Source: a virus
IMG/VR virus record: IMGVR_UViG_3300037137_001027
Location: 62,001-126,000 of that record
Reading direction: 5' to 3' (one strand)
DNA: 64,000 nt
Shown here: piece after piece, positions 11,319 to 47,318 of the stretch
Layout of the letters: every line of letters begins with the position of its first letter
Position numbering within the stretch: position 1 is the stretch's first letter
The notes under the pieces: generated by a model
The model's database searches: none
The model's input: the letters and a program-made list of their open reading frames with translations, nothing else
What the model was told of the DNA's origin: nothing
Made by a program: the position numbers and the translations under genes

Positions 11319-11354
11319 AGGAAGGGGGGAGAAATCCCCCCTTCCTCTTTTTTT
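11319..11354 (+). terminator. strong intrinsic terminator
   Basis: AGGAAGGGGGG pairs with CCCCCCTTCCT across a 6-nt loop, followed by CTTTTTTT. Confidence 0.9.
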
Positions 11355-11368
11355 GTCTTATAGGTTTA

Positions 11369-11384
11369 TAGAGGTTGTACTAAA
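11369..11384 (+). promoter_or_regulatory. array promoter P13 (leaderless)
   Basis: TAGAGG + TTGTACTAAA; +1 coincides with ATG 11391. Confidence 0.75.
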
Positions 11385-11390
11385 CCTATC

Positions 11391-11564
11391 ATGGACGAAC
11401 GGCTTTTTTGTGAATGGGAGAATGGGTCTTACGTCAATTCTCTTATGGGCGGCGACCGCTTCTTAGAGGATTTGATGGAATTGGTACGGGAGTATGGTCC
11501 ACCGATCAAGGTGGAAATCCGTGGGGCTAGTATGGTTTCGACAGCGGCCCAAGTGACAGGCTAG
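11391..11564 (+). CDS. hypothetical 57-aa protein overlapping the tmRNA-like gene
   Basis: Leaderless ATG at the predicted +1 of P13. Acidic helical product (FLEDLMELVREYG). Its last 40 nt lie inside the tmRNA-like RNA, so the transcript from P13 probably serves as mRNA and as the RNA's precursor. Confidence 0.55.
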   Translation: MDERLFCEWENGSYVNSLMGGDRFLEDLMELVREYGPPIKVEIRGASMVSTAAQVTG

Positions 11565-11659
11565 ACCGTGGTAGGTCGGACCCGAAAACATGCCTAAAAA
11601 CAAAGTAGGGTGTCTGTTAGCAAGTCGTCTGGACCTGGGTTCAATTCCCAGCTAGTCCA
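11524..11659 (+). ncRNA. ssrA-like: short tmRNA-like RNA
   Basis: The 5' end GGGCTAG (11524-11530) pairs over 7 bp (one G-U) with CTAGTCC (11652-11658), leaving discriminator A at 11659. Directly before the 3' strand is a T-arm CTGGG-TTCAATT-CCCAG (11635-11651), preceded by GGAC as in tmRNAs. After the 5' acceptor strand comes TATGGTTTCGAC (11531-11542), the conserved tmRNA D-loop signature. There is no normal D or anticodon arm, so it is not a tRNA. At 136 nt it is far shorter than usual tmRNAs (about 350 nt), with no room for four pseudoknots. I see no convincing proteolysis tag frame. CCA is not encoded. Confidence 0.7.
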
Positions 11660-45668: not shown

Positions 45669-47297
45669 TTACTCCTCGGTATCATCGCCATGATCTTCGT
45701 CGTGGTTGTAATGATCGTCATGATCTTCTTCTTCATGATCGTCATGATCTTCTTCTTCATGATCTTCGCCACCAGATAGGGCTTCATCTTTTGAACTAAG
45801 TCTCTTGCGGAACTTGTCGGTTTCTAGCCATTTAATTGCGTCTGAGAATTCTGAACCTTGTGGAGTACGACCACCGAAAAGTTTGGCAATTGATGGGTTA
45901 ATACTTTTCTTACCTTTTTCATCGGAAACAAAACCTTTAGTGTCAAGTTCATGATTTAGGAAGTGATGCAGAACATCTTCTGGTTGCTTGTTCATGCTGC
46001 CCCATTGTTTTACTAAACTTGGCACCATGCCAGTCTTATGAAAATTCTTCTTCATGTCGAAGAACTTATCCAAGAACAGTTTTGGATTCTTGCCATGTTC
46101 ACTCATCCATTTTGAGAATTCAATAAGTGTAACAATATCACGCACTTCGTCATCTGACCAAGCGCCCTGGTGGAGCATTTTCTCTACTTTAGCAGGTGGA
46201 TTAGCTCTTAGCAACCATGCAATTGCCAATCGCTTTTCTTTTTTATCAGAGAAGTCTTCGGCTGAGTCAAGTTTGAAAGTCATATCAGGGAACACGGTAT
46301 CTAATAGACCCATTTCCTTATACATTTTAACATATTGGACAGGATCGGTGTCTGGATGTTGTAAGCCTTTAAGGAATTCTTCTTTAATCTTTTCACGGCT
46401 AATTGATGGTAAATCTTTGATATCTTTGATAGCAGACTTAACATCGTCGCCAATCTTGGTATTTTTGCCGTGTGAAGCGACCTGGCGCACATATCTCAAT
46501 ACGCGGCCTTGATCTTCTCCAAGTCTTTCTTTCGGGTTGCCTACGAATTCAATTTCACCACGGCGCAAGTGATGTGCGCCACCGTGCGGATCGACAAGTT
46601 TAGCATTAGCCCCGTCAGCACTTGTCAAAGGAATGTACATAGCATTAACAGTAAAGTCTCTTCTGGCTGCATCGTCATCCAAAGTACCGAACTCCATGCT
46701 GTCTGGAGTCTTGCCGTCACCGCTGCCTTTGGAACCTTTTCTAAATGTGGCTATTTCGAATTCTTCTCCATTGACTCTGGCGTTAAATACATATTCTTTT
46801 CCACCACGATCCCAGCCCTTTGCGTGGAAAACCTTGTTCTTTTGTCCTGCTTCTGGATGCTTGTCATATTTGGTGGTTTGTGACTTACCATCGCCTTGTG
46901 GTTTAACTTCAGTAAATCCAGCGCTTCTCAGGATTAAACGAATTTCATCTGGTCCTGCATCCGTTACTAAATTGTAGTCTCTAGGAGTTTTGCCCAAGAG
47001 GTGGTCACGGACTGCGCCACCAGTAAGATACAATCCCTTCTTCTTTAGACGTGGGGAGGTTTCACCTTTTGCTGGGTCAATGGTGGTTAACTTTTGCGGA
47101 TAACCGTCAGGACCAGGCAGGGAAACCTTATCACTATCTAAGAAAGCTTTAGCAATAACCCTTAAATTAGGGTGATTTTCACCATCAATAACAAATGGCT
47201 TGAAGTCTGTATCATCAGCCAGTTTGACTTCTGAAGATGCCTTCTTAGCTTCTGTATTCTCTTTCAATCCAACAAATTCTAAAAATGTTTTTCTCAT
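45669..47297 (-). CDS. large CCA-adding/poly(A)-polymerase-like protein with capsid-targeting-like N-terminus
   Basis: Start ATG 47297 gives MRKTFLEFVGLKENTEAKKA, like the T4 capsid-targeting peptide with an L-x-E site. Residues about 88-270 are a class II nucleotidyltransferase head: LTGGAVRD (91-98), RDYNLVTDA (106-114), RRDFTVNAMY and the GRVLRYVRQ neck. The usual D-x-D metal pair reads D-Y-N, so catalysis may be lost or altered. The C-terminus is an Asp/Glu/His-rich tail with a repeated DHEEEDHDD block. Length 542 aa. It may be packaged in the head and injected. Confidence 0.75.
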   Translation of the reverse strand: MRKTFLEFVGLKENTEAKKASSEVKLADDTDFKPFVIDGENHPNLRVIAKAFLDSDKVSLPGPDGYPQKLTTIDPAKGETSPRLKKKGLYLTGGAVRDHLLGKTPRDYNLVTDAGPDEIRLILRSAGFTEVKPQGDGKSQTTKYDKHPEAGQKNKVFHAKGWDRGGKEYVFNARVNGEEFEIATFRKGSKGSGDGKTPDSMEFGTLDDDAARRDFTVNAMYIPLTSADGANAKLVDPHGGAHHLRRGEIEFVGNPKERLGEDQGRVLRYVRQVASHGKNTKIGDDVKSAIKDIKDLPSISREKIKEEFLKGLQHPDTDPVQYVKMYKEMGLLDTVFPDMTFKLDSAEDFSDKKEKRLAIAWLLRANPPAKVEKMLHQGAWSDDEVRDIVTLIEFSKWMSEHGKNPKLFLDKFFDMKKNFHKTGMVPSLVKQWGSMNKQPEDVLHHFLNHELDTKGFVSDEKGKKSINPSIAKLFGGRTPQGSEFSDAIKWLETDKFRKRLSSKDEALSGGEDHEEEDHDDHEEEDHDDHYNHDEDHGDDTEE

Positions 47298-47318
47298 ATA
47301 CCTGCTCACCTATTATTA

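What the first reader, a model, noticed from the sequence alone, without database searches (positions are those of the whole stretch)
11524..11659. A 136-nt tmRNA-like RNA, about a third of the normal size
Seen: a 7-bp tRNA acceptor stem, a perfect T-arm and the tmRNA-specific TATGGTTTCGAC element in correct order, with no D or anticodon arm. Known: cellular tmRNAs are about 350 nt with four pseudoknots and a tag frame. Here only about 90 nt remain for the middle and I see no convincing tag. It overlaps the end of a leaderless gene. Inference: it could be a minimal working tmRNA, a decoy that blocks SmpB/trans-translation, or a tRNA-mimic aminoacylated with alanine.
Basis: partly seen in the sequence, partly recalled or inferred. 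Interest (0 to 1): 0.8.

Follow-up and report, generated by a model that had tools for sequence, protein, structure and literature searches.

The report
Tagless mini-tmRNA of large phages
Some large bacterial viruses carry a shrunken version of the RNA that bacteria use to free stalled ribosomes; it keeps the alanine-accepting, tRNA-like end but has lost the message that tags faulty proteins, and its shape is kept by selection in unrelated viruses, so it probably enters or blocks the host's ribosome-rescue pathway.

Summary
Window 11524-11659 (+) encodes a 136-nt RNA with the ends of a tmRNA. Rfam's tmRNA model matches above its cut-off (50.4 bits), skipping about 256 model positions; ARAGORN misses it.

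It is not debris. In a related huge phage the RNA is 82% identical while both flanks are at the random level. Five homologues share one fold: acceptor stem, T arm, long H2 helix, and a three-way junction carrying a GUGGUA hairpin and an A-rich hairpin. 24 of 35 pairs have compensatory changes. G3·U70, the alanine identity pair, is invariant.

No tag reading frame is shared. No virus record checked encodes SmpB. Pattern scans of IMG/VR found about 30 further distinct mini-tmRNAs of 77-166 nt.

Best reading: an alanylated, SmpB-binding, tagless tmRNA that competes with or diverts host trans-translation. The closest published case is the TLD-only tmRNA of mycobacteriophage DS6A. This class is larger and structured, so I file it as a new variant of a known kind. 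Decoy versus tagless rescue is undecided; one relative also encodes a full-length tmRNA.

The parts
11524..11659 (+). mini-tmRNA, 136 nt (mature ends; CCA not encoded)
   Evidence: RF00023 50.4 bits; 82% identical RNA with the same ends at the syntenic place in L002; covariation
11524..11530 (+). acceptor stem 5' strand GGGCTAG (G3 of G3·U70)
   Evidence: sequence; pairs with 11652-11658; GU invariant in 5/5
11652..11659 (+). acceptor stem 3' strand CTAGTCC plus discriminator A
   Evidence: sequence
11531..11542 (+). tmRNA D-loop analogue TATGGTTTCGAC
   Evidence: sequence; GG..TCGAC invariant in class A
11542..11548 (+). H2a 5' strand CAGCGGC, pairs with 11624-11631 (one bulge)
   Evidence: 97% of cells paired, 6 of 7 pairs with compensatory changes
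11554..11561 (+). H2b 5' strand TGACAGGC, pairs with 11612-11619
   Evidence: 5 of 8 pairs with compensatory changes
11564..11577 (+). junction hairpin GACC-GTGGTA-GGTC with invariant loop
   Evidence: alignment A1; 95% of cells paired
11580..11611 (+). A-rich hairpin S2: ACCC / 24-nt loop with ATGCC and CAAAG / GGGT
   Evidence: stem re-written in every relative but kept (ACCC/GGGU, ACGC/GCGU, CAGGG/CCCUG, CAAAG/CUUUG, CGUAG/CUACG)
11635..11651 (+). T arm CTGGG-TTCAATT-CCCAG
   Evidence: 100% of cells paired, 4 of 5 pairs compensatory
11371..11384 (+). GAGGTTGTACTAAA motif, likely phage promoter element upstream of the RNA
   Evidence: 65 copies in window vs 0.4 expected, one strand, first half of the window; a similar ATTGTACCA motif brackets the RNA in L002
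11663..11676 (+). next copy of the motif, start of the following unit
11319..11346 (+). intrinsic terminator after the DUF932 gene, isolating the RNA unit
   Evidence: 12-bp stem plus T-run
45669..47309 (-). PolyA_pol / CCA tRNA nucleotidyltransferase family protein that could add the missing CCA
   Evidence: PF01743 3e-23; phrog_2244 tRNA nucleotidyltransferase 9e-36

Best explanation
A phage-encoded, tagless tmRNA that acts on the host's trans-translation pathway. Inferred steps: (1) it is transcribed as its own unit from a phage promoter motif; (2) RNase P and 3' trimming give a 136-nt RNA and CCA is added, possibly by the phage's own nucleotidyltransferase-like enzyme; (3) host alanyl-tRNA synthetase charges it through G3·U70; (4) host SmpB and EF-Tu bind the tRNA-like end and H2; [quoted passage not shown] Shown here: RNA-level conservation, the alanine identity pair, the SmpB-side recognition elements at sequence level, loss of the tag, and absence of a phage SmpB. 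Steps 1-5 are inference.
For: tmRNA ends and Rfam match; covarying fold with invariant G3·U70; selection confined to the RNA; no shared tag frame; no SmpB in 44 virus records, nearly all carrying such RNAs; about 30 further distinct mini-tmRNAs in viral contigs, several with clear tailed-phage genes; the RNA stands between a terminator and promoter-like motifs. Precedent: a TLD-only tmRNA of phage DS6A type strongly inhibits tmRNA, perhaps by titrating SmpB (PMC4131195, citing Mao et al. 2009; PMC11915505).
Against: A pure decoy needs only the tRNA-like end, as in the 77-79-nt forms; the conserved three-way junction and A-rich loop suggest an extra job. One relative (G001) also carries a full-length tmRNA with a normal-looking tag, ATPYEYALAA, which is odd for a phage that wants to block tagging. 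Close relative L004 lacks the RNA at this place, so it is dispensable. No expression or binding data.
Confidence: 0.5

Rival explanations
1. Tagless ribosome rescue: the charged RNA with SmpB takes the nascent chain from the stalled ribosome and frees it (through drop-off and peptidyl-tRNA hydrolase, or a release factor) without marking the protein for destruction. It would be a working rescue factor rather than an inhibitor.
For: Alanine identity pair kept; conserved middle domain beyond the tRNA-like end; mitochondrial tmRNAs also lack a tag frame yet are kept together with SmpB (PMC11915505); coexists with a full-length tmRNA in G001.
Against: No known way to end the reaction without a stop codon; a DS6A-type RNA inhibited tmRNA in E. 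coli (PMC11915505).
Confidence: 0.25
2. It does carry a very short message in the A-rich loop, e.g. GCC-UAA giving a two-alanine tag in the window RNA, and performs trans-translation with a minimal tag.
For: GCCUAA occurs in the loop of the window RNA; 2-aa Ala-Ala tags are reported for Fermentibacterota tmRNAs (PMC11915505).
Against: Anchored on the conserved AUGC element, the frame reads ASTQVA* in L002 and has no stop before the T arm in L022, L078 and L132; no start column from 57 on ends in a stop in all five (with hand re-anchoring).
Confidence: 0.1
3. A tRNA-like element whose job is not on the ribosome: an RNase P / 3'-processing punctuation signal in the transcript, or a sponge for AlaRS, CCA enzyme or EF-Tu.
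For: Some 77-79-nt forms sit between head genes or just upstream of a capsid gene, where a processing signal would make sense.
Against: A processing signal or AlaRS sponge would not need the tmRNA-specific TTCGAC element or the missing anticodon arm; the window RNA is in its own unit.
Confidence: 0.1
4. A decayed ssrA remnant or an attP site left by integration at the host tmRNA gene.
For: Many phages carry the 3' end of ssrA as attP; seen here next to integrases in mycobacteriophages Shandong1, Milly and LeMond.
Against: Both ends are present and covary; conserved at 82% against random flanks; no tyrosine integrase in the virus record.
Confidence: 0.03

Closest known systems
TLD-only tmRNA of Mycobacterium phage DS6A (tmRNA Website; PMC4131195, PMC11915505)
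   Same: Phage-encoded, keeps the tRNA-like domain, lacks a tag frame.
   Different: DS6A is described as little more than the tRNA-like domain; the window RNA is 136 nt with a long H2 and a covarying three-way junction. I could not fetch DS6A to compare sequence.
Canonical bacterial one-piece tmRNA (Rfam RF00023)
   Same: Acceptor with G3·U70, GGUUUCGAC, T arm, H2; scores above the family cut-off.
   Different: About 256 model positions missing: no tag frame and no room for PK2-PK4. Class model R1 gives 139 bits here (the window is one of its training sequences) but 20.6 bits on a full-length phage tmRNA.
Tagless mitochondrial tmRNA (RF02544) and about 65-bp plastid tmRNAs (PMC11915505)
   Same: tmRNA-derived, no tag frame.
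   Different: Organellar; no RF02544 match was reported for the window at the gathering threshold.
Full-length tmRNAs of phages (Bxz1, Wildcat, phage G; permuted forms in marine phages)
   Same: Phage-borne ssrA.
   Different: Those carry a tag and full or two-piece architecture; this RNA has neither.

Membership tests
tmRNA (RF00023) | Acceptor stem with G3·U70 alanine identity pair | tested here: met
   GU in 5/5 class-A RNAs and in all hits with an intact 7-bp acceptor, including those found by patterns that did not constrain it
tmRNA (RF00023) | GGNUUCGAC D-loop analogue and T arm, no anticodon arm | tested here: met
tmRNA (RF00023) | Helix H2 joining the tRNA-like domain to the rest | tested here: met
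   H2a and H2b covary
tmRNA (RF00023) | Resume codon and tag reading frame ended by a stop | tested here: not met
   no start column from 57 on ends in a stop in all five relatives
tmRNA (RF00023) | Ring of pseudoknots PK1-PK4 | tested here: not met
   33 nt replace 256 model positions; single-sequence PK1-like searches not above shuffles; pseudoknot in class B not significant, 2882 of 40320 permutations
tmRNA (RF00023) | SmpB binding and trans-translation activity | not testable with these tools
   No SmpB in the virus records; host SmpB assumed
DS6A-type TLD-only phage tmRNA | Tag-less, phage-encoded tRNA-like domain | tested here: met
DS6A-type TLD-only phage tmRNA | Little more than the tRNA-like domain | tested here: not met
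   136 nt with H2 and three-way junction; 77-79-nt forms of that type exist separately
ssrA-derived attP site | Only the 3' part of ssrA, next to an integrase | tested here: not met
   both ends present; no PF00589 in G000
Mitochondrial tmRNA (RF02544) | Match to the family model | tested here: not met
   not reported at the gathering threshold

The most novel reading that the evidence does not exclude
Tagless mini-tmRNAs with a conserved three-way-junction domain are a widespread, largely unannotated class of phage RNA that enters stalled ribosomes with host SmpB and either frees them without tagging or shuts trans-translation down.
Probability: 0.5. Interest if true: 0.78.

Novelty: new variant of a known kind. 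Interest (0 to 1): 0.62.

Why it matters
Only one tag-less phage tmRNA (DS6A) was found in the open literature searched. If this class is real and active, phages of several lineages target or bypass bacterial ribosome rescue with a small RNA. It would give natural minimal tmRNAs for testing which parts SmpB, AlaRS and the ribosome need, and would ask whether tagging matters to phage infection. ARAGORN called none of them in the loci scanned, which would explain why they are unannotated.

Tried and rejected
Near and distant BLAST of the window RNA and of window 1-25000 against known phages: no match. A universal PK1-like pseudoknot: the single-sequence search did not beat shuffles and the class-B permutation test was weak, so I do not claim it. 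A tag starting at GCC or GCA: frames are not homologous; class C has ANTAGLTE*/ANTVGMFK* frames (read by eye), but their stop lies in the UAG/UAA of helix H2, so structure alone explains it. attP or remnant: rejected. Minimum free energy alone is not unusual (z = -1.4), so the case rests on covariation. Bacterial chromosomes: the pattern over 85,000 genomes gave 26 hits, of which only two have a true acceptor (L042, near a serine integrase, and L043). DS6A record not held.

Full report
What is there. The window lies in a 159.5-kb IMG/VR virus record. At 11524-11659 (+) is a 136-nt RNA with tmRNA ends: acceptor GGGCUAG/CUAGUCC with G3·U70, UAUGGUUUCGAC, and a T arm. Rfam RF00023 matches it end to end at 50.4 bits (cut-off 47), with 33 nt standing where the model has 256 positions. 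ARAGORN does not see it. CCA is not encoded. The phage encodes a PolyA_pol/CCA-enzyme family protein, and also an RNA ligase and tRNA-Glu.

It is under RNA-level selection. The DUF932 gene upstream led to relatives. L002 (340.9-kb contig) and L003 carry the RNA at the same place: 82% identical over 136 nt, against 53% and 51% for the flanks, where shuffled sequence gives about 48-50%. A relative at 63% protein identity (L004) lacks it there. Further class-A copies lie in L022 (41-kb contig), L078 (356-kb contig) and L132 (36-kb contig, inside an array of more than 30 tRNAs). In the five-sequence alignment, 24 of 35 pairs show compensatory changes, 88% of cells pair (at most 49% when slid), and no shuffle of 500 reaches this; the alignment puts L132's acceptor one column off register, which lowers the count. 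RNAalifold finds the same fold unaided: acceptor, T arm, H2a, H2b, then a three-way junction with a hairpin closed over an invariant GUGGUA loop and an A-rich hairpin whose stem differs in almost every member but always pairs.

It has lost the message. No start column from 57 on gives a stop before the T arm in all five. Earlier columns run through H2 and give unrelated peptides. In the window RNA a GCC-UAA in the A-rich loop would encode a two-alanine tag like that reported for Fermentibacterota (PMC11915505), but relatives do not keep it.

It belongs to a wider set. Patterns built on GGTTTCGAC, a short gap and the T arm found many contigs in IMG/VR. After filtering for a 7-bp acceptor and T arm there are about 30 distinct sequences of 77-166 nt, and every intact acceptor has G3·U70, including those found without that constraint. 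They fall into class A, a shorter class B without the junction hairpin, class C with encoded CCA, which the class-A model scores at 57-76 bits against about 20-29 for ordinary tmRNAs, and 77-79-nt forms of the DS6A kind. Of 44 virus records, 39 exceed Rfam's cut-off and none has SmpB; many records are fragments. In 85,000 prokaryote genomes the main pattern gave only two true hits. Streptomyces phages LuckySocke, BRock and Shaeky carry unannotated 78-79-nt forms in tRNA arrays, and a 484-kb huge phage carries a 108-nt form.

How it may work. G3·U70, the D-loop analogue and the T arm are what AlaRS, SmpB and EF-Tu read on tmRNA (established knowledge). An RNA that keeps these, has no tag, and is encoded by phages without SmpB is most simply a competitor of host tmRNA, as proposed for DS6A (PMC4131195). 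Two facts temper this: the middle domain is conserved beyond decoy needs, and G001 also encodes a full-length tmRNA with tag ATPYEYALAA. Tagless rescue is therefore a serious rival. The RNA appears to be its own transcription unit: a terminator precedes it, and copies of a phage-wide motif (65 in the window, 0.4 expected) lie before and after it, an arrangement mirrored in L002.

Membership. It is tmRNA-derived and Rfam-positive but fails the tag and pseudoknot criteria, so it is not filed as a functional tmRNA. It is a new, larger and structured variant of the tag-less phage tmRNA known from DS6A.

Noticed in passing
window 837-33174: GAGGTTGTACTAAA/T motif, 65 copies with up to 2 mismatches (0.4 expected), nearly all on + and only in the first half of the window, mostly between genes: likely a phage-specific promoter element; the relative has ATTGTACCA in the same role.
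   Followed up: partly
L070 1691-1769; L068 4566-4644; L096 4049-4127: 79-nt TLD-only tmRNAs sit between the prohead protease and major capsid genes in two phage lineages, about 80-115 nt upstream of the capsid start; could be late RNA or an mRNA-processing signal.
   Followed up: partly
L005 1503-1859 (-), contig IMGVR_UViG_3300014202_001521: The same huge phage that has the mini-tmRNA encodes a full-length tmRNA with tag ATPYEYALAA, near genes that look like SpoVR and DNA polymerase III alpha (by eye).
   Followed up: partly
L113 1501-1578; L114 1491-1568; L120 501-579: Unannotated 78-79-nt mini-tmRNAs in tRNA arrays of cultured Streptomyces phages LuckySocke, BRock and Shaeky.
   Followed up: partly
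L115 955-1224; L119 448-737; L117 470-854: Permuted two-piece tmRNA genes with no tmRNA feature in the records of Synechococcus phages S-CAM3 and Sf-FS3 and Achromobacter phage JWDelta; in S-CAM3 one is annotated over as a hypothetical protein.
   Followed up: no
L132 8263-14701: A 36-kb virus contig holds an array of more than 30 tRNA genes with a class-A mini-tmRNA inside it.
   Followed up: no
L042 2507-2649: A 140-nt tmRNA-like RNA in a Burkholderiaceae MAG about 700 nt from a serine integrase gene; may be a prophage or att-site derivative.
   Followed up: no
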